From contig CANLTZ010000001.1 of NCBI GenBank assembly GCA_947494145.1, positions 1 through 64,000 on the forward strand: DNA of 64,000 nt, read 5' to 3'. A model generated the notes under the pieces. It was not told where the DNA came from and searched no databases. It saw nothing but the letters and a program-made list of their open reading frames with translations. This document shows, piece after piece, positions 3,350 through 61,971 of the stretch (positions are counted from its first letter, which is position 1; every line of letters starts with the position of its first letter). The translations under genes and the position numbers were made by a program. The stretch comes from an uncultured Jannaschia sp. Lineage in GTDB: Bacteria; Pseudomonadota; Alphaproteobacteria; Rhodobacterales; Rhodobacteraceae.

Positions 3350-3981
3350 ACCCGCTCCGTGGCCAGGCGATAGGCCGCATAGGTGAAGAACGTGCCGATT
3401 GAGGCCTGCACCACGCGGCGGCCCTTGGCATAGGCGGCCACGGCAGCCCGGGTCGAGAAGGCCAGGGCGTAGGTGGTGTGGCCAGCCAGAGACAGGGATG
3501 AACAACCCAAGACCAGCGCGACCTTGATCGCCGTTGGCGTATCGGGGCCGATAGCGACGGCGGTGGTGGCGACCCAGTAGATGGCCGCTTTGGGATTTGT
3601 CATCTGCACGATCAAACCGCGGGCCCCATAGGCCTGCAAGCTGGGCGCGGTGACTGCCCGAGCATCCACCTCAACTCTGCGCGCCGCTGAGCGGAAGGCG
3701 CCCCAGGCAAGCCACAGCAGATAGGCCGCGCCAACAATCTTGAGAATTGTCATGGCCCCGGCCCAGAGGGTAAGGATCGCGACGAAGCCGGTCACGGCCA
3801 CAAGCGACCAGAGAAAGCTGCCGAAGGAGACGCCGGCGGCCAGTGCCAGCCCTTCGGCCCGGCCCCGCTCCATCGAGGTGCCGATGATCGCGAGGACGTT
3901 AGGTCCGGGCGATAAAAGGCCAAGGCAGAGAATACCATAAGCCACCAACAGCCCGGGCAGGTGGGGGGCGAGGTCCGTCAT
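3346..3981 (-). CDS. LysE/RhtB family exporter
   Basis: A 211-residue membrane protein with the LysE/RhtB signature near the N-terminus (LLSPGPNVLAIIGTSMERGR, residues about 22-41), several hydrophobic segments and the MTNPKAAIYW motif at about 126-135. Family members export amino acids or related metabolites. It is locked between the two permease genes of a nucleoside importer by ATGA overlaps on both sides, so it is co-translated with them. Why an exporter sits inside an import operon is not evident; purine-base or nucleoside efflux would be one guess. Confidence 0.88.
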   Translation of the reverse strand: MTDLAPHLPGLLVAYGILCLGLLSPGPNVLAIIGTSMERGRAEGLALAAGVSFGSFLWSLVAVTGFVAILTLWAGAMTILKIVGAAYLLWLAWGAFRSAARRVEVDARAVTAPSLQAYGARGLIVQMTNPKAAIYWVATTAVAIGPDTPTAIKVALVLGCSSLSLAGHTTYALAFSTRAAVAAYAKGRRVVQASIGTFFTYAAYRLATERV

Positions 3982-5114
3982 GATCCGGCCTTTTCTTCTG
4001 TGCGTGTCGGCATCGGCGCCTCGGGCTTGCGGCGCATGGACAAGAACAGCCGCTCCATCGGCAGGCGGACCATGTTGTCCAGCGCGCCGGTGAACAGGAT
4101 GACCAGCGCCTGGATGACCACGATCATTTCCCGCGTGATGGCCGGGATCTCGAACTCAACCTCGGCCCCGCCCTGATAGAGCACCCCGAACAGCAGCGCC
4201 GCCAGGAACACGCCGACAGGGTGGGATCTTCCCATGAGGGCCACCGCGATGCCCACGAAACCCGCCCCTTGGACGGGGTCGATGACCAGACGCTCAGCTT
4301 CGCCCATGACCGAATTGGTGGCCATCAGGCCGCATAGCGCCCCGGAAATCAGCATGGCGATCATGGTGATCTTGAAGGGTGAGATCCCGGCATAGATCGC
4401 CCCCGGCTCCGACTTGCCGAAGGACCGGATTTCATAGCCCAGGCGCGTGCGCCAGATCAGGAGATAGACGAAGATGCACGACGCGATGGCCAGGAAGAAG
4501 CTGATGTTGAGCGGGGTGGACCGGCGGAAACCCAGCCAAGGCGCGATGTCATAGGCCGATGGCAGCCGGACGGCTTCTGCGAAGCGGGCCGTTTCAGGCG
4601 CACCGCCCGCGCCCGGAACCAACAGCACACGGCTCAGCAGGTAGACCATCAATGCCGAAGCGATGAAGTTGAACATGATCGTCGTGATGACGATGTGGCT
4701 GCCGCGCCGCGCCTGCAGATAGGCCGGGATGGAGGCCCAGGCCGCTCCGAACGCCGCCGCCCCCAGCGTCGCTGCCAAAAGCGCCAGGGACCAGTGCGGC
4801 CAGGGGACGAACAACAGCACCAACGCCACACCCAGCCCGCCAATGGCCGCCTGGCCTTCACCGCCGATATTGAACATCCGCGCATGGAAGGCGACGGCGA
4901 CGCCCAGCCCGGTGAAGATGAAGTTGGTGGCGTAAAACAGCGTGTAGCCCCAGCCATAGGCCGAGCCGACGGCGCCATTGACCAAGATCGCCAGCGCCTC
5001 GAACGGGTTTTCCCCAATCAGCGCCACCACGATGCCCGATACGAACAAAGCCAGCGCCAAGTTGATCATCGGGATCAGCAGGATATCGACCCATTTGGGC
5101 AGCGTGTCGTTCAT
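3978..5114 (-). CDS. Nucleoside-type ABC transporter permease (first subunit)
   Basis: A 378-residue inner-membrane permease of the BMP/YufP class, longer than its partner, with the motif ARMFNIGGEGQAAIGGLG after the third hydrophobic segment and GAGFVGIAVALMGR in the second half. It ends in a short charged cytoplasmic tail. ATGA overlaps join it to the ATPase gene upstream and the LysE-like gene downstream. Together with the ATPase, the second permease and the BMP lipoprotein it makes a complete importer. Confidence 0.9.
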   Translation of the reverse strand: MNDTLPKWVDILLIPMINLALALFVSGIVVALIGENPFEALAILVNGAVGSAYGWGYTLFYATNFIFTGLGVAVAFHARMFNIGGEGQAAIGGLGVALVLLFVPWPHWSLALLAATLGAAAFGAAWASIPAYLQARRGSHIVITTIMFNFIASALMVYLLSRVLLVPGAGGAPETARFAEAVRLPSAYDIAPWLGFRRSTPLNISFFLAIASCIFVYLLIWRTRLGYEIRSFGKSEPGAIYAGISPFKITMIAMLISGALCGLMATNSVMGEAERLVIDPVQGAGFVGIAVALMGRSHPVGVFLAALLFGVLYQGGAEVEFEIPAITREMIVVIQALVILFTGALDNMVRLPMERLFLSMRRKPEAPMPTRTEEKAGS

Positions 5115-8195: not shown

Positions 8196-8624
8196 TCAGG
8201 CGTTGGCGGCAAGATCCTTGCGCAAAGCCAACGCATCGGTGGCGCCATAATAGTCCTTCCGCTTACCCGCGATCTGCCATCCGGCCTTCAGGTAGAGCGT
8301 TCGGGCCACAAGGTTGTCCGCCGAAACTTCCAAGAACGCCGTCGTGGCACCGCGTGAGCGGGACTCCGTCTCAAACTCGGAAAGCAGGCGTCTGCCTTGG
8401 CCTCGGCCCCGCCGGTCCAGGGGCACGACCAGCGTCAGTAGCTCGGCTTCATCTTCGATGACGCGCCCCAGCGCGAATCCCTCGGCGGAGCCACCTTCGG
8501 GGATAAAAAAGCATGACGGGTTGGCATGTGCCTCTGCGAAAGCCGCGGGCGACCATCGGGCAGAGCCCGAGAAACACGTGGCGTGCAGCGCAGCAAGCGC
8601 ATCTGGAGAGGTCATGTTGGTCAT
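8196..8624 (-). CDS. rimI: Ribosomal-protein-alanine N-acetyltransferase RimI-like
   Basis: A 142-residue GNAT enzyme. It shows the order expected for RimI: HATCF near the N-terminus, a W at about 24, LTLVVPLDRRGRGQGRRLL with the acetyl-CoA loop RRGRGQG, then FLEVSADNLVARTLYLKAGW. RimI acetylates the N-terminal alanine of ribosomal protein S18. It follows tsaB by 44 nt, the pairing seen in many bacteria. Note that the ten GNATs at 54.7-60.5 kb belong to another branch (RimJ/RimL-like). Confidence 0.82.
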   Translation of the reverse strand: MTNMTSPDALAALHATCFSGSARWSPAAFAEAHANPSCFFIPEGGSAEGFALGRVIEDEAELLTLVVPLDRRGRGQGRRLLSEFETESRSRGATTAFLEVSADNLVARTLYLKAGWQIAGKRKDYYGATDALALRKDLAANA

Positions 8625-52077: not shown

Positions 52078-53061
52078 ATGAAGACCGACGAGACACGGCG
52101 CCGCCAGGTCGAGGCCGATGCCCGGGCCGCCTGGCCCCATCTGGGCCGGGCGGCAGGCCTGCCAGAGGGCGGGCAGCGCCTGGACGTCATCCGTACGCGC
52201 AGCCAGCGCGCGGCCACGCGGACGGTGCTGACAGTGACGGGGCCGGGCCATGGGGGGCTGGTCCTGAAGCACGCGCCGGATGAAAGTGCCGCGCGATTCG
52301 ACAGTCAGATGGCGGTCCATCAGCGGGCGGAGGCGGCCTTTGAGGGGGTCGAAGGGCTTGGCGTGCCGCGGCTTCTGGCGGCGGACCGGGCGCGCCGGGC
52401 CTGGCTGATGGAGCGGGTGCCGGGATTGACGGTGCAGGACGCCATGCAGCTTGCGGACGGGGCAGGGCGGCTTGCCTTGTTGGAGCAAGCGGGCCGTTGG
52501 CTGGGGCATTTGCACCGGTCGGGCGAGATCCAGTTCGGGCGGCACAAGCCGGGCCCGCTGCTCAAACAAGTGACATTGTGGGAGGCGGCACTGGCGGACG
52601 GGACGATGCCGGTTCTGGATCAAACGCGGTTTCGGGCACTTATGGCGCATACGCGCGCCTTGGCGGAGGCATCCCGCGGGGTGAAGGTCACCCGGACGGT
52701 CGTCCATGGCGATGCGAACCTGCGCAACCTGATCGTGGAGGGCGGCCAGGTCTGGGGGATCGATATGGGCGCGGCGCGGCTGCGTCCGCCGCCTGTCGAT
52801 CTGGCGCGTCTCTTGGTCTGGCACGAGACGTTTTTCGGCCCCGTGGATGGCGACCCGGTGGATACGCCCGAGGCCGCGAGGGCCGCCCTGCTGGCGGGCC
52901 ATGGCGGGCGCTGGCGCGATAGCAGCGCCTTGGCGCCCTATCTGGCGGTGGAGCTTTTGCGGCTGTGGCGGTCTGTGCCGGTGTCTTTCATGGCGCGCGG
53001 CATGTTGCACCATCGCCGTTGGGCGGGGGTCCAGCGAATGGCGGCGCGGCTACTGGGTTGA
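52078..53061 (+). CDS. APH-like phosphotransferase (kinase-fold) family protein
   Basis: A 327-residue protein with a phosphotransferase/aminoglycoside-kinase-like core: RAWLMERVPGLTVQDAM, VVHGDANLRNLIVEGGQVWGIDMGAARL (catalytic HGD...N and IDMG in place of DFG/IDWE). ATP-binding N-lobe with LVLKHAPDESAARF. Substrate unknown. It is the only plus-strand gene of this region, sitting between rimM and trmD and overlapping rimM's end by 12 nt; the 84-nt gap to trmD's start forms a divergent promoter region. Confidence 0.82.
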   Translation: MKTDETRRRQVEADARAAWPHLGRAAGLPEGGQRLDVIRTRSQRAATRTVLTVTGPGHGGLVLKHAPDESAARFDSQMAVHQRAEAAFEGVEGLGVPRLLAADRARRAWLMERVPGLTVQDAMQLADGAGRLALLEQAGRWLGHLHRSGEIQFGRHKPGPLLKQVTLWEAALADGTMPVLDQTRFRALMAHTRALAEASRGVKVTRTVVHGDANLRNLIVEGGQVWGIDMGAARLRPPPVDLARLLVWHETFFGPVDGDPVDTPEAARAALLAGHGGRWRDSSALAPYLAVELLRLWRSVPVSFMARGMLHHRRWAGVQRMAARLLG

Positions 53062-53565
53062 GGCGTCGTCAAGCAGGCCGGGCGGTGGGTCGATGACAAG
53101 GCGGCGCGCGGTCAGGTCGACGGTGGGTACGATGGCCTTGGTGAAGGGGACAAGGACTGGGGCGCCGCCTTTCGGACGAAGCTCCAACAAGTCGCCGGCG
53201 CCGTGGTCATGGACGGCGTGGACGCGACCCAGATCGGCGCCGCCCGTATCGACAGCCGTCAGGCCGATCAGGTCGGAATGATAGAATTCGTCATCCGGCA
53301 GGTCGGGCAGCGCGGTGCGCGGCGCCCAGAGGCGCTGGCCGCGCAGGGCGTCGGCGGCTTCCTTGTGGGGCACGCCCGACAGGCGCACGGCATAGCCGCC
53401 CTTGACGGGACGGATGACCGTCACCTTGTAGTTGCGGCCCTGGTCATCGGTGAGGGGGCCGTAATCGCCGATGGCGGAGGGGTCGGCGCAGAAGCTTTTG
53501 ACGCGGGCTTCGCCGCGCACGCCGTAGCTGCCGGTGATGGCGCCGAGGCAGACGTGGTCTTTCAT
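53050..53565 (-). CDS. rimM: Ribosome maturation factor RimM
   Basis: A 171-residue protein binding S19 and needed for 30S maturation. Starts MKDHVCLGAITGSYGVRGEARVKSF (RimM N-domain), with KGGYAVRLSGV in the middle and the PRC-barrel DDEFYHSDLIGLTAV... KAIVPTVDL at the end. ATG 53565 is preferred (25 residues shorter than the longest frame), as it gives the canonical N-terminus. Overlaps the antiparallel kinase-like gene by 12 nt. Confidence 0.95.
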   Translation of the reverse strand: MKDHVCLGAITGSYGVRGEARVKSFCADPSAIGDYGPLTDDQGRNYKVTVIRPVKGGYAVRLSGVPHKEAADALRGQRLWAPRTALPDLPDDEFYHSDLIGLTAVDTGGADLGRVHAVHDHGAGDLLELRPKGGAPVLVPFTKAIVPTVDLTARRLVIDPPPGLLDDASTQ

Positions 53566-53740
53566 GGCAGCGTCTCTTGGGTTTGGCCGGTTTGGAACCG
53601 GGGGCAGTGTCTGTTGGGGCGCGTGTCTTGGGTCTGTCAAGAATCGTGGGCGGCCTGCTCGTCGGGCTTTTGCGACCCCGTTGGGGGCGCAGCCCTTCTC
53701 GCGGTGGTCGGAGGGAACGTCTCAGGCGGTGGGCCATGTG

Positions 53741-53958: not shown

Positions 53959-54336
53959 TTACTCGCTCGCGGCGTCTTCGGCAGGCGCCTCGGCGGCAGC
54001 GGCGGCCTTGTCGGCCTTTTCCTGCGCGCGTTCCTGGGCCTTCTTGCCCGGCTCGGCCTTCTTCATGTTCGCGCGCTCTTTCTTGGGCAGCACATCGGCG
54101 GCCTCCAGGAAGCGGCTGACGCGGTCGGTGGGCTGGGCGCCCTGACCGAGCCAGTATTGCACGCGCTCCATGTTCATTTTCACGCGCTCTTCGCTGTCCT
54201 TGGGCAGAAGCGGGTTATAGGTGCCCAGCTTTTCGATGAAGCGGCCGTCGCGGGCCATGCGGCTGTCGGCGGCGACGATAGAGTAATGGGGGCGCTTCTT
54301 GGAGCCGCCACGGGCAAGGCGAATTTTCATAGCCAT
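53959..54336 (-). CDS. rpsP: 30S ribosomal protein S16
   Basis: A 125-residue S16: [40 protein letters not shown], and an alanine/lysine-rich C-terminal tail longer than the bacterial core. AAGGAA precedes the ATG at 54336. Downstream of aroQ by 26 nt. Confidence 0.97.
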
Positions 54337-54362: not shown

Positions 54363-54659
54363 TTACGATTGATGTTGCCGATGATGTCGGATCACTTCCT
54401 CGATTATGAAGGCGAGGAATTTCTTGGCGAAGTCGGGGTCCAGCCCGGCTTCCACCGCCATGGCTTCTAGCCTGGCGATCTGCTTGGCCTCCCGCTCCGG
54501 ATCAGAGGGGGGCAGGTCGTGGCTGGCCTTGAGCTTGCCCACCGCCTGGGTGTGGGAAAAGCGTTCGGCCAGGGTGTAGACGAGGACCGCGTCGAGGCGG
54601 TCGATGGAGGCGCGATGCTCGGCCAGAAGGGCGGCGGCGCGGGTGGCGGCGTCGGTCAT
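54363..54659 (-). CDS. Chorismate mutase (AroQ type)
   Basis: A 98-residue all-helical chorismate mutase of the monofunctional AroQ class, converting chorismate to prephenate. Conserved R...[27 protein letters not shown] in QIARLEAMA and a C-terminal [15 protein letters not shown]. It stands between the GNAT array (97-nt gap with a 7-bp hairpin at 54685-54704) and rpsP. Confidence 0.92.
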
Positions 54660-54755: not shown

Positions 54756-55358
54756 TCAGTCAAGGGGCATCCCTTCGGGGCGAAATTTGGGGTCGGCGTA
54801 ATGCGCGATCTCGCGGGCGATGGCCCAGGACAGGCGCGTGTCGTCCAGCGCGTCGGGCGCGGGGTGGCGGTAGACGGCATCGTTGCCGTCGATGGTGGCG
54901 GCATCGGGGTCGCGCTTGGCGCCCAGCCGTTCGCAAAGCCGGATCGAGTCGAGGTTTTTCGGGTCCACATAGCTGACGGCGCCGGCCCAGCCTTGGGCAT
55001 AGAGGTGGCGGCGCGCGGCATCCGTGGCCTCTAGCGCATAGCCATGGCCCGATTCACGCGGCCAGATAATCCAAGCGAGTTCCCGTTCGGGCCAGGCCGC
55101 AGGTTGCCAACCGCCCGCCATGCCCAGCGTGCGGTCGTCTTCGCGGGCATGTATCATCCACATGCCGAAGCCGCGGATGTCCCAATGGCCGATTTCGGCG
55201 GCGTAGAGCATCCACGCCTCATAGGCGTTGAGTGGGCCGCCCATGAAGCGCGACCGGTAGGAGGCGAAGGTGGTCTTGAAATCGGGGTAATCCTCGGGCT
55301 CGGGGGCGCGCAGGATAAGGCGGCGCGTTTCGAGCGTGGGAATGGAGGCGCGGCTCAT
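54756..55358 (-). CDS. GNAT acetyltransferase 10 of the array
   Basis: A 200-residue RimJ/RimL-type GNAT, last of the tandem array. Begins MSRASIPTLETRRLILRAP; then MGGPLNAYEAWMLYAAEIGHWDIRGFGMW, the acetyl-CoA loop RESGHGYALEATDAAR and SYVDPKNLDSIRLCERLGA. It has an extra 25-residue tail after the canonical RHPAP. It keeps the R of the RxxGxG/A loop. Starts in the ATGA overlap with GNAT 9. Confidence 0.92.
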   Translation of the reverse strand: MSRASIPTLETRRLILRAPEPEDYPDFKTTFASYRSRFMGGPLNAYEAWMLYAAEIGHWDIRGFGMWMIHAREDDRTLGMAGGWQPAAWPERELAWIIWPRESGHGYALEATDAARRHLYAQGWAGAVSYVDPKNLDSIRLCERLGAKRDPDAATIDGNDAVYRHPAPDALDDTRLSWAIAREIAHYADPKFRPEGMPLD

Positions 55359-55939
55359 GATGTCTTCCCCGTCTTGGGGGCGCTGCCCCCGTCCCGGTCA
55401 GAGGCCGGGACCCCCCCGGAGTATTTTTGCCAGGATGAAGGGGGCGCGGGATGGCGCATAACATGGACCATGCCGATGGCCGGGTGGTCATGGGGGCCGT
55501 CAGATGTGCAGCCCATGCGCTTGGCGAGCGCCATGGAGCGGGTATTCGTGGGCGCGATATAGGATATAAGCGTCGTCCAGCCCAGCGTGTCATAGGCATG
55601 GGCGCGGGCGGCAAGCGCGGCTTCCATCGCGATGCCGCGGCCTTCGCCTGCCGCATAGAGCGACCAGGCCAATTCGGGCTCAGACCAGTTGTCGGGGTGG
55701 TGGAGGCCGACGATGCCCAGAGGCGCATCGGTTGCGCGGTCGGCCACGAGCCAGCGGCCATAGCCGCGCAGGACCCATTGGCCGGCAATGCCTGCGAAGT
55801 GGTCATAGGCGCCCTCGCGCGTGTCGGGACCACCGACGGGGCGGGCCCGGTCGGAGGTGCGGAAGGCGGCATGGGCATCGAAATCGTCCATGCGGGGGGC
55901 GCGCAGGGTCAGACGTTCGGTGGTCAGCGTCGGGATCAT
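55355..55939 (-). CDS. GNAT acetyltransferase 9 of the array
   Basis: A 194-residue GNAT: MIPTLTTERLTLRAP, PVGGPDTREGAYDHFAG, GQWVLRGYGRW, EPELAWSLYAAGEGRGIAME and AYDTLGWTTLISYIAPTNTRS. The last about 30 residues (PPSSWQKYSGGVPASD onward) are coded by an intergenic repeat (55376-55440) and have no homologue in the other nine. The ordinary end would be near the RHPAP motif. Confidence 0.92.
   Translation of the reverse strand: MIPTLTTERLTLRAPRMDDFDAHAAFRTSDRARPVGGPDTREGAYDHFAGIAGQWVLRGYGRWLVADRATDAPLGIVGLHHPDNWSEPELAWSLYAAGEGRGIAMEAALAARAHAYDTLGWTTLISYIAPTNTRSMALAKRMGCTSDGPHDHPAIGMVHVMRHPAPPSSWQKYSGGVPASDRDGGSAPKTGKTS
55376..55440 (+). repeat. GC-hairpin/GGAGTATTT intergenic repeat, copy 3 (in coding sequence)
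   Basis: Two hairpins (GGGGGC.GCCCCC at 55376-55390 and GTCCCGG.CCGGGAC at 55391-55411), then CCCCCCCGGAGTATTTTTGC and CAGGATGAAG. This best-preserved copy lies inside the 3' end of GNAT gene 9, translated in antisense. Confidence 0.8.
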
Positions 55940-56451
55940 CGGATCACCTCGGCCGGGGCGGGGTGTCGGTAGACCAAGTGATCGGCTTGGCCGTCGCGCG
56001 GGTGGCGGCGGTCGAAGCGCGCGCCCATGCGTTCGGCCAGCGCGATGGAACGGGTATTGCCGTCGGCGATACAGCTGAAGACCTCTGGCCAGCCCAGTGT
56101 GTCATAGGCATAGGCACGCGCGGCAAGTGCTGCCTCAAGGGCGATGCCTTGGCCTTCCTTGTCGGCGACGACCATCCAGCCGACTTCGCGCTCGGCCCAG
56201 CCCTCGGGGTACCAAAGGCCCACTTGGCCGCAATAGGCGCCGGTGGCAGTCTCTTCGACCGCCCAGAAGCCGTAGCCGCGCAGGTCCCAATGGCCGATTT
56301 CGGCGGCGAATTGCACGAAGGCTTCGGCCCGGGTTTTCACACCGCCCCGCAGGCGGGCGCGGTCGGAGGCGTAGAAGGCGGCATAGGCGTCGAAATCCGC
56401 TGGCCGATTGGGGCGCAGGACAAGCCGGTCGGTGGTGAGGGTCGGGATCAT
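55936..56451 (-). CDS. GNAT acetyltransferase 8 of the array
   Basis: A 171-residue GNAT: MIPTLTTDRLVLRPNRPADFD, FAAEIGHWDLRGYGFW, EREVGWMVVADKEGQGIALE, AYDTLGWPEVFSCIADGNTRS, ending in VYRHPAPAEVIR. The R/Q of the Q/RxxGxG loop is D here. Closely similar to copies 9 and 5 over AYDxLGW, as expected for late duplicates. Confidence 0.93.
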   Translation of the reverse strand: MIPTLTTDRLVLRPNRPADFDAYAAFYASDRARLRGGVKTRAEAFVQFAAEIGHWDLRGYGFWAVEETATGAYCGQVGLWYPEGWAEREVGWMVVADKEGQGIALEAALAARAYAYDTLGWPEVFSCIADGNTRSIALAERMGARFDRRHPRDGQADHLVYRHPAPAEVIR

Positions 56452-57014
56452 GCCGTGCCCTCCGGGCGGGGGTGGCGCCAGATGGTGATGCGGCCACCCA
56501 TGATCGTGCCATCGGGCGTGGCGCCCAGGCGGGTGGCAACGGCCTCGGACCGGGTGTTGCCGGGCGTGATGTAGCTGACCAGGGATGGCACGCGCAGGGC
56601 TTGCCAGGCGTGGGCATTGGCGGCGCGGGCAGCTTCGGTCGCGAGGCCCTGGCCCTCGAACTCGGCGCGCAAAAGCCAGCCCAGTTCGTGTTCTTCATCC
56701 CCCGGTTCCAACCCAATGAGGACGAAGCCTGCCACATCGCCGCCGCGCGTCTGGATTGTCCAGAGGCCGTGGCCGCGCAGCAGCCAAGTGGCGGTCATGC
56801 CGCAGAAATCCTGCCAGCTTTCTTCCAGCGTCGAGGGTCCGCCCTCAAAGGCGCTGCGGTCGGTGCCGGTGATGGCGTGGAGCGCGTCGAAATCCGTCAG
56901 CCGCGGGGCGCGTAGCATGGTCCTGGCGGTGTGCAGCACGGGGACGGCCGCTTCCAGCAACGCGGCGCGGTCGGCGGCGGGCGCCGGGACGGGAAGAGTG
57001 ACGGGCGCGATCAT
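56448..57014 (-). CDS. GNAT acetyltransferase 7 of the array
   Basis: A 188-residue GNAT with an N-terminal extension: MIAPVTLPVPAPAADR before the usual TARTMLRAPRLTDFD. Further FEGGPSTLEESWQDFCGMTATWLLRGHGLW, EHELGWLLRAEFEGQGLATEAARAA, and SYITPGNTRSEAVATRLGATP. ATG 57014 is chosen because it gives the ATGA overlap with GNAT 6. Confidence 0.92.
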   Translation of the reverse strand: MIAPVTLPVPAPAADRAALLEAAVPVLHTARTMLRAPRLTDFDALHAITGTDRSAFEGGPSTLEESWQDFCGMTATWLLRGHGLWTIQTRGGDVAGFVLIGLEPGDEEHELGWLLRAEFEGQGLATEAARAANAHAWQALRVPSLVSYITPGNTRSEAVATRLGATPDGTIMGGRITIWRHPRPEGTA

Positions 57015-57511
57015 GCGGCCGCCCCGTGGACCCAGATGGTGCAGGCCAAGTCGTGGGTGGGGGCAATCCCCGTGTCGTGTGCGCCCAGGCGTGCGGCGAG
57101 GCGTTGACTGGGCGTGTTGCCGCGGTCGATATGGCTGACGATGCGGGGCCATTTCGCCGCGAGGCCCGTGTCGCGGGCCCAGGTAAGGGCGGTTTGCGCG
57201 GCCTCGGTGGCGAGGCCTTTGCCGGTGGCGGAAAAGAGTGACCAGCCCAGTTCTACATCCGGGCGGCCAGCGGGCAGATGAAAGCCGCAGGTGCCGATTG
57301 CGCCGGTGCCGTCATCCAGCACCCACCAGCCATAGCCGCGCAGGGGCCAGTGGCCGCGATCACTGGCTAAGACCTTCCAGGCGGCGGTTTCATCCAGGGG
57401 ACCGCCGATGATGTGTGACCGCGCGGACGCGTAGAAGGCGGCATAGGCGCTGTGGTCGCATGCTTCGGGCGCGCGCAGCGTCAGGCGCGGGGTGGTCAAT
57501 GTCGGGATCAT
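57011..57511 (-). CDS. GNAT acetyltransferase 6 of the array
   Basis: The shortest member (166 residues): MIPTLTTPRLTLRAPEACDHS, IIGGPLDETAAWKVLASDRGHWPLRGYGWW, DVELGWSLFSATGKGLATEAA, ending in CTIWVHGAAA instead of RHPAP. Its end is more diverged than that of the others. Confidence 0.92.
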   Translation of the reverse strand: MIPTLTTPRLTLRAPEACDHSAYAAFYASARSHIIGGPLDETAAWKVLASDRGHWPLRGYGWWVLDDGTGAIGTCGFHLPAGRPDVELGWSLFSATGKGLATEAAQTALTWARDTGLAAKWPRIVSHIDRGNTPSQRLAARLGAHDTGIAPTHDLACTIWVHGAAA

Positions 57512-58029
57512 GCGGCGACCTCCGACGGGGCGGGGTGCCGCCAGACCGCCATGTCGCCGAAGCGTTCATAGGTGAAGCGGCCATCGGGACGCGCGCCCAG
57601 GCGGCGTGCCACGCGGGTCGAAGCGTCATTTCCGTCTGCGACCAGGCTGATGAGGGTCGTCCAGCCCAGCATGTCATAGGCATAGCTGCGAGCGGCATGG
57701 GCGGCCTCGGTCGCGTAGCCTTGGCCTTCATGACCCTCGAACAGGTCCCAGCCCAGTTCGTGTTCGGGGAAACCTGCCGGAAACCACAGGCCGACGATGC
57801 CGATGGGGGCACCACTGGCGCGGTGTTCCACCACCCAGCGGCCAAAGCCGCGCAACAGCCAGTGGCCCGCTTCTTGCGCCAGCACACGCCAAGACAACTC
57901 AGCCGTGAGCGGGCCGCCGACAAAGGACGCGCGGGGTGAGGCGTAGAAAGCCGCCAGCGCGTCGAAATCGTCGATATGGGGCGCGCGCAGCGTCAGCCGG
58001 TCGGTCGTCAGGGTGGGGATGGCGATCAT
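57508..58029 (-). CDS. GNAT acetyltransferase 5 of the array
   Basis: A 173-residue GNAT: MIAIPTLTTDRLTLRAP, FVGGPLTAELSWRVLAQEAGHWLLRGFGRW, EHELGWDLFEGHEGQGYATEAAHAA, AYDMLGWTTLISLVADGNDAST and a final MAVWRHPAPSEVAA. Confidence 0.93.
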   Translation of the reverse strand: MIAIPTLTTDRLTLRAPHIDDFDALAAFYASPRASFVGGPLTAELSWRVLAQEAGHWLLRGFGRWVVEHRASGAPIGIVGLWFPAGFPEHELGWDLFEGHEGQGYATEAAHAARSYAYDMLGWTTLISLVADGNDASTRVARRLGARPDGRFTYERFGDMAVWRHPAPSEVAA

Positions 58030-58538
58030 GGGGCGCCCCCGGGCTGGCGGTAAACCAAGGCTGGGCCGCTGCTGCCTTCGGGGCGCGGGGCGTCCGGGTC
58101 CAGCCTTGCGCCCATACGCTCCGCCAAGCGGATGGAGCGGTCGTTGCCCGCGCGGATATAGTGGACGATGTCGGTCCAGCCCAGGCGGGTGCGGGCATCG
58201 GCCATGGCGGCTTGGGCGGCCTCAAAGGCGTAGCCGTGGCCTTCGGCGCCGTCGAAGAGGACCCAGCCGATTTCCGTCTCCGGCCATCCTGCGGGGAAGT
58301 AGGGGCCGACCATGCCGATGGCCGTGTCGTCCCCTTTGCGTGTCACGGCCCAGAGGCCGAAGCCGCGCATCTGCCAATGCCCCAGCATGGCGGCAAAGGC
58401 ACGCCAAGCGGCGGGGCGGGGCAGGTGGCCGCCCGTCATGGCGCTGCGCTCAGACATGTAGAACGCGGTGGCGGCGTCTTCGTCGCGCGGCGCCAGGGGG
58501 CGCAGGGTCAGACGCGAGGTGGTGAGGGTCTGGGTCAT
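58026..58538 (-). CDS. GNAT acetyltransferase 4 of the array
   Basis: A 170-residue GNAT: MTQTLTTSRLTLRPLAPRDED, MTGGHLPRPAAWRAFAAMLGHWQMRGFGLW, TEIGWVLFDGAEGHGYAFEAAQAA, YIRAGNDRSIRLAERMGARLD and VYRQPGGAP. The last motif is RQP not RHP. Confidence 0.92.
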   Translation of the reverse strand: MTQTLTTSRLTLRPLAPRDEDAATAFYMSERSAMTGGHLPRPAAWRAFAAMLGHWQMRGFGLWAVTRKGDDTAIGMVGPYFPAGWPETEIGWVLFDGAEGHGYAFEAAQAAMADARTRLGWTDIVHYIRAGNDRSIRLAERMGARLDPDAPRPEGSSGPALVYRQPGGAP

Positions 58539-59062
58539 GCCGCGCCACTTTCTGGGCCGGGATGGCGCCAGGTGCGGACGGGACCGCCAGGTGTGGCTGC
58601 ATCGGCGTCAAGCTGGCAGCCTAGACGCTTGGCCAGCGCGACGGAGCGGGTATTGGCGTCTTCGATGTAGCTGACCGCTTCCGTCCAGCCGAGCCGGGCA
58701 TAGGCATCGGCGCGCGCCGCGCGGGCGGCTTCGGCAGCGATGCCACGCCCTGCGGCGGGGGCATAGGCTATCCAAGTGAGTTCGGGGGCAGGCCAGCCCT
58801 CTGGCTGTTTGGGCCCGACGAGGCCGATGCTGTCGCCGCCATCTTCCGTCACGGCCCAGGGGCCAAAGCCCCGGTGCAGCCAGTTCCAGATGACGGCGCC
58901 GAAGCTGCGCCAGGCGGCAGTCGGATTGCGGTGCCCGGCGAAGAAGCGCGCGGCATCCGTTTCCATGAACGCGGCATAGGCCGGCCAATCCGCGACCTGT
59001 GGCGGCCGCAGGGTCAGACGCTCGGTCCGCAGGACCGGGTTATCGGGCAGGCAGTCGGTCAC
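58535..59062 (-). CDS. GNAT acetyltransferase 3 of the array
   Basis: A 175-residue GNAT: NPVLRTERLTLRPPQVADW, FFAGHRNPTAAWRSFGAVIWNWLHRGFGPW, ELTWIAYAPAAGRGIAAEAARAA, YIEDANTRSVALAKRLGC and WRHPGPESGAA. It follows the NIPSNAP gene by a 4-nt overlap. Confidence 0.92.
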   Translation of the reverse strand: MTDCLPDNPVLRTERLTLRPPQVADWPAYAAFMETDAARFFAGHRNPTAAWRSFGAVIWNWLHRGFGPWAVTEDGGDSIGLVGPKQPEGWPAPELTWIAYAPAAGRGIAAEAARAARADAYARLGWTEAVSYIEDANTRSVALAKRLGCQLDADAATPGGPVRTWRHPGPESGAA

Positions 59063-59391
59063 AGGTTCAGATCATCCGCACTGGCGCCGTCGAAGACGGG
59101 CCGGGTGAAGGAACGGTCGTAGCGGCGGATGCATCCGCTGCGCTGGGCAAAGGCATAGGCGCGTTGGCAGTCGGGATCGGCGTGCATGCGGTCGCGGTAA
59201 GCTTCGTAGGCGGCCAGCGAGGGGAAGGAGAAATGGCAATAGGCGATGTCGTTGGGGCCTTCATGGGGCATGTGGTAGCCATGGTGCGTGCCGCCCATGA
59301 CCGGGATCTGGTGGAGCCAAAAACGCGCATAGGTTTCGAACTCGGCCATCTTTTCGGGGTCGATTTCATAGCGAACGGTGCAGGTGATCAT
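59059..59391 (-). CDS. NIPSNAP-like small protein
   Basis: A 110-residue ferredoxin-fold protein: MITCTVRYEIDPEKMAEFETYARFWL, GGTHHGYHMPHEGPNDIAYC, FPSLAAYEAYRDRMHADPDC and RSFTRPVF. Such dimeric alpha-beta barrels (NIPSNAP/DUF1330 group) have no general enzyme activity; some bind small molecules. Start 59391 makes an ATGA overlap with GNAT 2, so it is inside the array, the only non-GNAT member. Confidence 0.88.
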   Translation of the reverse strand: MITCTVRYEIDPEKMAEFETYARFWLHQIPVMGGTHHGYHMPHEGPNDIAYCHFSFPSLAAYEAYRDRMHADPDCQRAYAFAQRSGCIRRYDRSFTRPVFDGASADDLNL

Positions 59392-59963
59392 GGCTGACCC
59401 CCGTGGCGCCAAACCTCAAGCTCGGGTTCGCCAATGGCGGCCTCGGCCCTGGGGTCGCGATGCGCGCCCAGGCGCTGGGCCAGGGCGGCCGAGTGCGCGT
59501 TGTCGGCGGCGATGTAGAACACGAAGTGGCCGTCACCCAGCAAGGTTGCGGCGTGGGCACGGGCCAGGGACGCGGCCTCGGTCGCGTAGCCTTGGCCGCG
59601 GTGCTGGGGCAGGAACATCCAGCCCAGTTCGGGTTCCACATCGTCCCATTCGAGACCCAGATGGACGAAGCCCAGAAGGGCGCCGTCCGACAGACGCTCC
59701 ACCGACCAAAGCCCGTGACCATGAAGAAGCCAGCCCGCCGCATAGGTGCAAAACGCCTCATATGCGCCTTCCGCATCATAGGGTCCGCCCACATGGGCTA
59801 GGTTGGCGCCCATCAGGATCTCGGTCCAGGCGGGCAGGTCCTCCGTGCGGGGGGCGCGCAGCCGTAGGCGCGCACCGTCCAGCACGGGCACCTGGGCCGC
59901 GTGATGGCGGGCCATATCGGCCGCGGCGCCTTCGGGCGCCCGGCTGCAACGGGGCGCAGTCAC
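59388..59963 (-). CDS. GNAT acetyltransferase 2 of the array
   Basis: A 191-residue GNAT with an N-terminal extension (MTAPRCSRAPEGAAADMARH) before LDGARLRLRAPRTEDL. Then HVGGPYDAEGAYEAFCTYAAGWLLHGHGLW, EPELGWMFLPQHRGQGYATEAA, one of two array members keeping the canonical Q/RxxGxG/A loop, and LEVWRHGGQP. Confidence 0.93.
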   Translation of the reverse strand: MTAPRCSRAPEGAAADMARHHAAQVPVLDGARLRLRAPRTEDLPAWTEILMGANLAHVGGPYDAEGAYEAFCTYAAGWLLHGHGLWSVERLSDGALLGFVHLGLEWDDVEPELGWMFLPQHRGQGYATEAASLARAHAATLLGDGHFVFYIAADNAHSAALAQRLGAHRDPRAEAAIGEPELEVWRHGGQP

Positions 59964-60493
59964 GGGGTCACCGCCGGATGCCGCCAGACTTCGCTGGTGT
60001 CGCCGAGCAGCGTGCCCATCGTCTCGAACGCGGCGCCAAGCCGTTCCGCCACCGCCTTCGACGCCAGGTTGTCGGGGTGAATCTGACTGATCAGCGGACC
60101 AAGCCCCAGCCGCGTGCGCGCATCTTCGCGCGCGGCCAAAGCGGCCTCGGTGGCATAGCCCTTCCCAGTGGCGCCGTCATACAAGTGCCAGCCCAGCTCC
60201 GGCTCGGGCCACATCTCGTGGAAGATCACACCGGCCTTGCCGAGGCGTGTGCCAGTGGACTTTTCCAAGATCTGCCAAAATCCATGACCACGCAGAACCC
60301 AGTGGCCGATGGTAGACGTGAACGAGCGCCAGGCCCCCCAGCGATCCGTCGGGCCGCCGGTGAACTCCATGCGGTCGGAGAGACCAAAGGCCAGGTGCGC
60401 CGGCCAGTCGCCTTCCTCGGGCACGCGCAGAACCAACCGCTCGGTCTCAAGCGGGGCGATCGCGGCCAGGTCATGGAATACGCAGGCTGTCAT
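59960..60493 (-). CDS. GNAT acetyltransferase 1 of the array
   Basis: A 177-residue GNAT, first in order after ffh. It has LETERLVLRVPEEGDWPA, EFTGGPTDRWGAWRSFTSTIGHWVLRGHGFW, EPELGWHLYDGATGKGYATEAALAA, HPDNLASKAVAERLGAAF and WRHPAVTP. ATG 60493 overlaps the ffh stop, so it is translationally coupled to the SRP GTPase. Confidence 0.93.
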   Translation of the reverse strand: MTACVFHDLAAIAPLETERLVLRVPEEGDWPAHLAFGLSDRMEFTGGPTDRWGAWRSFTSTIGHWVLRGHGFWQILEKSTGTRLGKAGVIFHEMWPEPELGWHLYDGATGKGYATEAALAAREDARTRLGLGPLISQIHPDNLASKAVAERLGAAFETMGTLLGDTSEVWRHPAVTP

Positions 60494-61971
60494 CGTTTCT
60501 TGCCGAAGCCCCCCATGCCCGCGGGCGGCGTGATGCCGCCGGGCATCCCGGGCATCTTGAGGCTGCCCATCTTGCGCGCGGCTTCCTCCAACTGGGCCTG
60601 ATCCATCTGCGACGGGTCGGGCATGCCGGCCTTGCCGCCCATCATCCCCATGGCCTTCTTGAGCATCCCGCCCTTGCCCATCTTCTTCATCATGTCGGCC
60701 ATCTGCCGGTGCATCTTGAGAAGTTGGTTCAGCTCACTCACTTCCAGCCCCGCGCCCTTTGCAATGCGCTTCTTGCGGCTGGCTTGCAGAAGCTGCGGGT
60801 TGGCCCGTTCCTTCTTCGTCATGGAATCGATCAGCGCGATCTGACGCTTGAGGATGCTGTCATCCAGGCCCGCCTTGTCCATCTGCTTGGCCATCTTGCC
60901 CATGCCGGGCATCATGCCCATCATCCCTTCCATGCCGCCCATCTGCTGCATTTGCAGAAGCTGGCCCTTCAGGTCGTTCATGCTAAAGAGCCCCTTCTGG
61001 AAGCGCTTCATCATGCGCTCCTGGGCCTCGACCTCCATGACCTCCTGGGCCTTTTCCACCAAGGCCACGATGTCGCCCATGCCCAGAATGCGGCCCGCGA
61101 TGCGCGACGGGTCGAACTCCTCCAACGCATCCATCTTTTCGCCGACACCCACGAAGCGGATGGGCTTACCGGTGACGGCCCGCATGGAAAGCGCCGCGCC
61201 GCCGCGCCCGTCGCCATCCATTCGTGTCAGACAGACGCCGGTAACGCCGACCTTGGCGTCGAATTCCTCGGCCACCTCAACGGCCACCTGGCCGGTCAGA
61301 CCGTCGACCACCAGCAGCGTCTCGCGTGGCTCGACCGCGGCATGGACCTGGGCCACCTCGTCCATCAGCACCTGGTCGATCTGCAACCGCCCCGCCGTGT
61401 CGAGCATATAGACGTCATAGCCCCCCAAACCGGCCTGGGTCTTGGCCCGCTTGGCGATATCCACCGGGCGTTGGCCTGGCACGATGGGCAGCGTATCCAC
61501 CCCGATCTGCCCGCCCAGGATGGCCAGCTGTTCCATGGCGGCAGGGCGGTTGACGTCGAGCGAGGCCATCAGCACGCGCTTGCCGTCCCGTTCCTTCAGG
61601 CGCCGGGCGATCTTGGCGGTCGTCGTCGTCTTCCCGCCCCCTTGCAGGCCCACCATCAGGATCGGCGCCGGAGGGTTATCGACTTTCAGCGGCGGGATGC
61701 CGTCTTCGCCCGCCAGCATCTGGACCAACTCATCATGGACGATCTTGATGACCTGCTGGCCCGGCGTGACGGATTTGGTGACGGCGGCGCCGGTTGCTTT
61801 GGCGGTGACGCGCTTGACGAAATCGCGCGCCACGGGCAGCGACACGTCGGCCTCCAGAAGCGCGACACGCACTTCGCGCATCGCGGTGCGGACGTCGTCT
61901 TCGCTCAGCGCGCCCTGTTTGGTGAGGCGGTCGAAGACGCCGCCCAGGCGATCTGACAAGCTCTCGAACAT
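60490..61971 (-). CDS. ffh: Signal recognition particle protein Ffh
   Basis: A 493-residue SRP54 GTPase that binds signal sequences co-translationally. N-domain MFESLSDRLGGVFDRL; G-domain loop VGLQGGGKTTTTAKIA near 105-120, then DTAGRLQIDQVLM and LTRMDGDGRGG; M-domain with repeated methionines (MQQMGGMEGMMGMMPGMG). ATG 61971 chosen. Its stop begins the overlapping gene chain. Confidence 0.97.
   Translation of the reverse strand: MFESLSDRLGGVFDRLTKQGALSEDDVRTAMREVRVALLEADVSLPVARDFVKRVTAKATGAAVTKSVTPGQQVIKIVHDELVQMLAGEDGIPPLKVDNPPAPILMVGLQGGGKTTTTAKIARRLKERDGKRVLMASLDVNRPAAMEQLAILGGQIGVDTLPIVPGQRPVDIAKRAKTQAGLGGYDVYMLDTAGRLQIDQVLMDEVAQVHAAVEPRETLLVVDGLTGQVAVEVAEEFDAKVGVTGVCLTRMDGDGRGGAALSMRAVTGKPIRFVGVGEKMDALEEFDPSRIAGRILGMGDIVALVEKAQEVMEVEAQERMMKRFQKGLFSMNDLKGQLLQMQQMGGMEGMMGMMPGMGKMAKQMDKAGLDDSILKRQIALIDSMTKKERANPQLLQASRKKRIAKGAGLEVSELNQLLKMHRQMADMMKKMGKGGMLKKAMGMMGGKAGMPDPSQMDQAQLEEAARKMGSLKMPGMPGGITPPAGMGGFGKKR

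What the first reader, a model, noticed from the sequence alone, without database searches (positions are those of the whole stretch)
54756..60493. Ten tandem GNAT acetyltransferases inserted in the ffh-rpsP-rimM-trmD ribosome/SRP operon
Ten consecutive minus-strand genes (54756, 55355, 55936, 56448, 57011, 57508, 58026, 58535, 59388 and 59960) are recognisable RimJ/RimL-type GNATs, mostly starting MIPTLTT-like, with GGP, GHW.LRG.G.W, G.G.A.EA and a final RHPAP-type motif. One NIPSNAP protein lies among them. Every junction from ffh through GNAT 10 is a 4-nt overlap (11 in a row), so the whole block is translated as one chain with Ffh. Eight of ten have lost the first R/Q of the acetyl-CoA loop. 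The usual neighbours of ffh are at most a few genes. An acetyltransferase paralogue array fused to the protein-export and ribosome operon suggests diversification of substrates, perhaps ribosomal or nascent-protein N-termini.
Basis: partly seen in the sequence, partly recalled or inferred. Interest (0 to 1): 0.85.

Follow-up and report, generated by a model that had tools for sequence, protein, structure and literature searches.

The report
Expandable acetyltransferase array beside ffh
Ten related but long-diverged acetyltransferase genes sit between two housekeeping genes of a bacterium; the same slot holds anywhere from none to twelve such genes in related bacteria, so it looks like a swappable set of enzymes for different substrates, which are still unknown.

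Summary
In detail: ten intact PF13302 GNAT genes and one NIPSNAP gene lie between ffh and a chorismate mutase gene, then rpsP, with eleven consecutive 4-nt overlaps. It is not a one-off insertion. In 120 genomes of other genera of the family and 20 of the window's genus, the ffh-rpsP interval holds 0 to 12 GNATs; 106 of 120 and 20 of 20 have at least one; ten is the second highest count of 140. The ten are not recent copies: they fall into nine of 16 old lineages that recur in other arrays. In the genus, 81 of 81 matches above 100 bits lie in this interval. Close orthologues are under purifying selection. Residues matching catalytic Ser148 and Glu102 of PA3944 are kept in 289 and 304 of 304 members, while three of four mapped acceptor-side positions distinguish lineages. 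The nearest characterised relative found is PA3944 (polymyxin acetylation), ahead of RimJ/RimL. I favour a fast-turnover repertoire of acetyltransferases for diverse small amine or peptide substrates, co-expressed with housekeeping genes. Substrates and expression were not tested.

The parts
60490..61971 (-). ffh, signal recognition particle protein; upstream boundary of the array
   Evidence: TIGR00959 556.7 bits, cut-off 473.2 (on the longer ORF); start taken at ATG 61971
59960..60493 (-). GNAT 1, lineage D
   Evidence: PF13302 E 2.3e-25; lineage
59388..59963 (-). GNAT 2, lineage B (divergent branch), with an N-terminal extension; the only copy of the ten with R in the R/Q-x-x-G-x-A loop
   Evidence: PF13302 E 1.7e-23
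59059..59391 (-). NIPSNAP protein
   Evidence: PF07978 E 1.7e-19; also in 12 of the other 19 genus loci and 5 of 120 other genera
58535..59062 (-). GNAT 3, lineage P
   Evidence: PF13302 E 1.3e-25
58026..58538 (-). GNAT 4, lineage J
   Evidence: PF13302 E 1.6e-27
57508..58029 (-). GNAT 5, lineage E; modelled
   Evidence: PF13302 E 1.3e-30; AlphaFold2 mean pLDDT 95.5
57011..57511 (-). GNAT 6, lineage I (all 11 members found are in the genus)
   Evidence: PF13302 E 8.1e-26
56448..57014 (-). GNAT 7, lineage B
   Evidence: PF13302 E 9.2e-26
55936..56451 (-). GNAT 8, lineage F (the only genus member among 23 in this lineage)
   Evidence: PF13302 E 1.8e-27
55355..55939 (-). GNAT 9, lineage G; C-terminal tail holds a dispersed repeat read in frame
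   Evidence: PF13302 E 1.1e-27; repeat
54756..55358 (-). GNAT 10, lineage A, the slow-evolving copy that is last in 47 of the 50 members of its lineage
   Evidence: PF13302 E 2e-22
54363..54659 (-). monofunctional chorismate mutase; downstream boundary of the array
   Evidence: NF006691 146 bits, cut-off 120; between ffh and rpsP in 119 of 120 other genera
53959..54336 (-). rpsP (ribosomal protein S16)
   Evidence: TIGR00002 107.9 bits, cut-off 45.3
53050..53640 (-). rimM
   Evidence: named from gene order and recall; a profile of this ORF finds the same gene after rpsP in relatives; no family library was searched with it

Best explanation
The ffh to chorismate mutase interval of this bacterial family is a home for one GNAT subfamily. 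Sixteen or more old paralogue lineages are gained and lost there as whole genes, mostly joined by 4-nt stop-start overlaps, so that any combination can be expressed with Ffh. The window's genome holds ten genes from nine lineages. Shown here: near-confinement to the locus within the genus, copy number 0 to 12, purifying selection between close orthologues, conserved active-site residues, lineage-specific residues at three of four mapped acceptor-side positions. Inferred: each lineage acetylates a different amine-bearing small molecule or short peptide by the serine-dependent chemistry known from PA3944, so the array is a detoxification or metabolite-tailoring repertoire kept at steady expression by the housekeeping operon. 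Gain and loss probably go by unequal crossing-over and homologous exchange between neighbouring or incoming paralogues, which would regenerate the overlaps; this was not tested.
For: Copy number 0-12; 106 of 120 other genera and 20 of 20 genus genomes have at least one. 81 of 81 genus matches above 100 bits lie in the interval, best outside 86 bits. Of six genomes with an empty interval four have no match at E 1e-12 and two have one of about 75 bits. Lineages recur across genera, A last in 47 of 50; lineage order follows the majority in 468 of 548 pairs against a shuffled mean of 0.70. Frequent presence changes: at least 22 for A and 26 for C on the core tree. 164 of 204 GNAT-GNAT junctions are 4-nt overlaps and 16 are 1-nt. 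dN/dS 0.08-0.32 for 12 of 16 pairs tried. Glu 304 of 304, Ser 289 of 304; positions matching PA3944 F44, F89 and F140 rank 11, 6 and 23 of 166 for lineage discrimination. Nearest solved structures: 2fsr, then PA3944. PA3944 acetylates polymyxin B and depends on Ser148 (PMC8072286, abstract and passages).
Against: No substrate was tested. PA3944 is only 27-28% identical in the fold search, and Ser148 is kept in 10 of its 11 closest structural homologues, so it does not define a substrate. Structures named as ribosomal-protein acetyltransferases are also found (2fck, profile E 4.3e-8; 2fck, 3igr, 6c30 and 1s7f). Lineage A evolves about as fast as the core genes (ratio 1.07), which suits a conserved internal substrate better than detoxification. 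The acceptor test used four positions; F43 ranked only 47 and was a backbone contact in a mutant; adding E102, also a docking contact and invariant here (rank 164), would raise the mean rank from 21.75 to about 50. Four wider pairs gave dN/dS 0.39-0.58. One genome (G090) has a strong member, 165 bits, outside its array. Lineages were cut from the same sequences used for the residue test, and some have weak support (H 0.47, O 0.15).
Confidence: 0.5

Rival explanations
1. Protein acetyltransferases: each copy acetylates the N-terminus or lysines of ribosomal, SRP or nascent proteins, which is why they sit with ffh, rpsP and rimM.
For: Conserved location between ffh and rpsP and overlaps with ffh in 36 of 91 ffh-GNAT junctions; RimL-like and RimJ structures share the fold (2fck E 9.8e-9, 3igr E 1.1e-8, 1s7f E 1.7e-7); lineage A is slow and usually last.
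Against: 2fsr (E 3.2e-16) and PA3944 (E about 2e-13) are closer (same order); 14 of 120 genomes have none; frequent presence changes and 2.0-3.2 fold the core rate in lineages B to J; a RimI-like gene exists elsewhere.
Confidence: 0.2
2. A metabolic series: the copies acetylate related intermediates of one internal pathway (polyamines, amino acids, aromatic or lipid amines), and the neighbouring chorismate mutase is part of it.
For: Chorismate mutase sits in the block in 119 of 120 other genera; spermidine acetyltransferases are among the weaker matches.
Against: Chorismate mutase is also there in 13 of the 14 loci with no GNAT, so it does not depend on them; lineage content looks too variable for an ordered pathway.
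Confidence: 0.18
3. Little or no function: a duplication-prone slot in which copies drift, kept because deletion would disturb the coupled operon.
For: Four of 307 units in 105 loci are partial, one NIPSNAP copy is split between two frames, and content is patchy.
Against: Low dN/dS between close orthologues, catalytic residues kept in nearly all of 304, lineages that recur across genera, and no recent duplicates among the ten (32-54% identity).
Confidence: 0.07

Closest known systems
PA3944-type serine-dependent GNATs (PDB 6EDD, 7KPS; PMC8072286)
   Same: Fold (TM about 0.9 by query length), profile match E 1.6e-25, catalytic Ser and active-site Glu at matching positions.
   Different: 27-28% identity; acceptor-side residues differ between array lineages; substrate of the array copies unknown.
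Agrobacterium acetyltransferase, PDB 2FSR (locus name Atu2435 recalled)
   Same: Closest solved relative: profile E 1.1e-50, 41% identity in the fold search.
   Different: No function known to me. Of 190 genomes sampled from the class, 16 of other families have one or two members (at most 163 bits, E 1e-30 threshold); in none of the 16 is it within 13 kb of ffh on the same contig, and in 11 it is on another contig.
RimJ/RimL/RimI ribosomal-protein acetyltransferases
   Same: Same fold; that RimJ and RimL belong to PF13302 is recalled.
   Different: Lower similarity than PA3944; of the six copies given to NCBIfam (six of ten) none matched a RimJ, RimL or RimI model at E 0.01.
Bleomycin-family acetyltransferases BlmB/TlmB
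   Same: Weak partial matches in five of the six copies searched.
   Different: Far below the curated cut-off, at best 42.4 of 625 bits.
Tandemly expanded bacterial gene families in general (recalled)
   Same: Copy-number variation at one locus with whole-gene gain and loss.
   Different: Here between housekeeping genes, in a chain of mostly 4-nt overlaps, and nearly confined to that locus in the genus.

Membership tests
GNAT superfamily, Acetyltransf_3 (PF13302) | Match above the curated cut-off | tested here: met
   10 of 10 copies, 80.8-107.4 bits against 25.4
GNAT superfamily, Acetyltransf_3 (PF13302) | Acetyl-CoA loop R/Q-x-x-G-x-G/A (motif recalled) | tested here: inconclusive
   The glycines and the A are kept in all ten; R/Q present in one of ten; E in 207 of 304 array members
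PA3944-like enzymes | Nucleophilic Ser (S148) and active-site Glu (E102) | tested here: met
   G5 S137 and E91, in all ten window copies and in 289 and 304 of 304 array members; mapping
PA3944-like enzymes | Acetylation of polymyxin-type amines | not testable with these tools
   Needs purified enzyme
RimJ/RimL/RimI ribosomal acetyltransferases | Match to a curated NCBIfam model | tested here: not met
   None of the six copies searched (of ten) matched such a model at E 0.01; four copies were not searched
RimJ/RimL/RimI ribosomal acetyltransferases | Acetylation of ribosomal proteins | not testable with these tools
   Needs an acetylome

The most novel reading that the evidence does not exclude
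The ffh-chorismate mutase interval is a cassette platform: a housekeeping operon into which a bacterial family loads interchangeable acetyltransferase genes (and now and then NIPSNAP or a sulfur-transport pair) by homologous exchange, giving each strain a custom repertoire against amine-bearing compounds, comparable in logic to an integron but without an integrase.
Probability: 0.3. Interest if true: 0.78.

Novelty: new variant of a known kind. Interest (0 to 1): 0.6.

Why it matters
Operons of essential genes are usually thought stable. Here such genes flank a slot whose content changes between related genera while its stop-start coupling is mostly kept. If the lineages have different acceptors, the family offers hundreds of natural variants of one enzyme at one address, a ready data set for linking acceptor-site residues to substrates in GNATs. 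Nine searches of the held paper library for such an array or its neighbours found no description of it (listings only); papers outside that library were not searched.

Tried and rejected
Recent tandem duplication: rejected, pairwise identities of the ten are 32-54% and no tandem DNA repeat was found. Pseudogene array: rejected. Relatives at unrelated loci: rejected for the genus, with one exception in another genus, G090. Fused double-domain proteins: none found in the loci scanned. Ancestral array with losses only, against horizontal exchange: not settled; the genus members of lineages A, D and I form single clades, those of B, C, E, G and H do not, and order is only partly kept. Promoters and terminators: one promoter-like site against 1.1 expected; 11 terminator-like sites against 6.0 (sd 2.6) expected, six of the 11 on the opposite strand and the four sense-strand ones in the array all inside genes; I read these as uninformative. 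Paper searches for the array: nothing on point, of which I saw listings and abstract beginnings only; one search looked for PA3944. Only PMC8072286 was opened: outline with abstract, 12 passages, section 20.

L031 (G016) ends at a contig edge, so its five copies are a minimum. Counts of GNAT units include partial ones. Three of 307 units were too short for the 304-row tree. The 120 other genera are a choice from 283 with a matching Ffh of 294 searched: 77 from the listed upper part of the Ffh ranking, where I passed over mainly fragmented assemblies; three seen; and 40 well-assembled ones picked by hand from lower down. It is not a random sample. Lineages, junctions, order and rates use 105 loci, 80 of these 120. 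The alignment for the structure job held 17 of the 20 GNATs of L009-L014; one had no ATG or GTG start found and two had overlong starts.
Full report
What is there. On the minus strand, ffh (60490-61971) is followed by GNAT 1, GNAT 2, a NIPSNAP gene, GNATs 3 to 10, a monofunctional chorismate mutase gene, rpsP and a gene I take as rimM. All ten GNATs match PF13302 at 80.8 to 107.4 bits, cut-off 25.4 (nine, GNAT 9). The 11 junctions from ffh to GNAT 10 are all 4-nt stop-start overlaps. After GNAT 10 there are about 100 bases before chorismate mutase. Nine of ten, not eight, lack the first R/Q of the acetyl-CoA loop.

Where it is. The genome has 4.9 Mb in 53 contigs. The named loci are from Actibacterium, Jannaschia, Pseudooceanicola, Oceanicola and two metagenome bins.

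It is a family-wide slot. I took the stretch downstream of ffh from 20 genus genomes including the window's own and from one genome of each of 120 other genera of the family. In 120 of 120 other genera rpsP lies downstream within the stretch, and chorismate mutase was found before it in 119. GNAT counts in those 120: 14 with none, 28 with one, 23 with two, 31 with three, 11 with four, six with five, four with six, and one each with seven, nine and twelve (the twelve include one partial copy). In the 20 genus genomes: 1 to 10, three at eight, and the window alone at ten. So ten is extreme but on a continuum.

The subfamily is almost confined to the slot. A profile of the ten found 81 matches above 100 bits in the 20 genus genomes, and all 81 lie in the interval by their coordinates; the best match elsewhere has 86 bits (rows counted by hand). 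Among 30 genomes of other genera, chosen to include six with an empty slot and most of those with one copy then known, 26 had a match at E 1e-12; the weakest match listed in an array had 148 bits and the best elsewhere 110. Four of the six empty genomes have no match at that threshold and two have one of about 75 bits. One exception: G090 has a 165-bit member about 137 kb from its array. Of 190 genomes sampled from the class, 19 had a match at E 1e-30: three of the family itself and 16 of other families, with one or two members of at most 163 bits. In those 16 the member is never near ffh on the same contig: five share the contig, the nearest being about 13 and 20 kb away, and 11 do not.

The ten are old. 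Pairwise identity is 32 to 54%. In a tree of 304 array members from 105 loci the nearest neighbours of each of the ten are in other genomes' arrays. Cutting the tree at clades with few repeats per genome gives 16 lineages of three or more members and ten singletons; the window reads D, B, NIPSNAP, P, J, E, I, B, F, G, A. Some clades have weak support (H 0.47, O 0.15). Lineage A is last, beside chorismate mutase, for 47 of its 50 members. The order of lineage pairs follows the majority in 468 of 548 cases against a mean of 0.70 in 500 within-array shuffles; without A, 314 of 393 against 0.73, largest shuffle 0.78. Presence changes often on a core-gene tree, from at least 6 (K) to 26 (C) times for lineages A to K; this is fewer than in shuffles for most, but within the shuffled range for C, D, H, J and K. 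Lineage A changes at 1.07 times the core rate, lineages B to J at 2.0 to 3.2 times.

They look like working genes. Twelve of 16 pairs tried have dN/dS of 0.08 to 0.32, against 0.09 to 0.18 for ffh, chorismate mutase, rpsP and rimM; four wider pairs gave 0.39 to 0.58 (simple counting method, GNAT dS up to about 1.1). Four of 307 units are partial, none in the window. 164 of 204 GNAT-GNAT junctions have an exact 4-nt overlap and 16 a 1-nt overlap, while ffh-GNAT has 36 of 91 and GNAT-chorismate mutase 28 of 94. The tight coupling is a property of the array interior, and the 11 in a row here is its upper end.

What the enzymes are. The predicted fold of GNAT 5 (mean pLDDT 95.5) is nearest to 2fsr and then PA3944, and the profile search of solved structures gives the same order. 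Structures named as ribosomal-protein acetyltransferases are also found, further down: 2fck, 3igr, 6c30, 1s7f and 2fck. PA3944 acetylates polymyxin B; its Ser148 is essential and Glu102 affects substrate choice (PMC8072286, abstract and passages). These align with Ser137 and Glu91 of GNAT 5. Glu91 is kept in 304 of 304 and Ser137 in 289 of 304 array members. In that paper Ser148 is kept in 10 of 11 structural homologues and Glu102 in 6 of 11, so the serine points to a working active site, not to a substrate.

Diversification on the acceptor side. PA3944 residues F43, F44, F89 and F140, named as docking contacts (F43 only as a backbone contact in a mutant), map to positions 36, 37, 82 and 129, which rank 47, 11, 6 and 23 of 166 by corrected mutual information between residue and lineage; mean rank 21.75, P 0.0026 for random sets of four. 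The contacts H167 and H179 lay beyond or outside what I mapped, and E102, invariant here (rank 164), was left out; including it would bring the mean to about 50. I read this as one chemistry with lineage-specific pockets, moderately supported.

Mechanism, with steps marked. Shown: near-confinement to the locus in the genus, variable content, stop-start coupling in the sequence, constraint, conserved active site. Inferred: co-transcription from ffh, acetylation of different small amine or peptide acceptors, benefit through detoxification or tailoring, and turnover by recombination between paralogues.

Other modules. NIPSNAP genes occur in 13 of 20 genus loci, one weak and one split between frames, and in 5 of 120 others, at different places in the array. 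A Sulf_transp plus DUF6691 gene pair lies in the interval in 5 of 120 other genera and none of the 20 genus genomes (named by Pfam for the L058 pair only). The slot thus holds other genes now and then.

Verdict. A real and striking array, an extreme of a family-wide pattern that I did not find described in the nine searches made. Its interest lies in the locus-bound turnover and in the natural series of acceptor variants; its substrates are open.

Noticed in passing
window 55414-55432, minus strand, and 26 other places in the genome: A dispersed repeat (TGGCAAAAATACTC...) lies in the C-terminal tail of GNAT 9; its 14-base piece has 27 exact copies in the genome and none of the reversed control; two more distant copies are in the window.
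   Followed up: partly
L053, L058, L067, L114, L154, between ffh and chorismate mutase: A sulfur-transport (PF04143) and DUF6691 (PF20398) gene pair sits in the same slot, in L058 without any GNAT.
   Followed up: partly
L114 (G098), ffh to rpsP: The largest array seen: 12 GNAT units, one partial, plus the sulfur-transport pair, with several singleton lineages.
   Followed up: partly
L030 (G010), about 1484-1739 and 3762-4023 after the ffh start: NIPSNAP is split between two frames and one GNAT is a remnant, so arrays seem to decay as well as grow.
   Followed up: no
window 8232-8600, minus strand: A RimI-like gene, 82.7 bits against a cut-off of 86.4.
   Followed up: no
G090:C1:3660113-3660601: A strong member of the subfamily (165 bits) outside the array of a genome that also has an array.
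   Followed up: no
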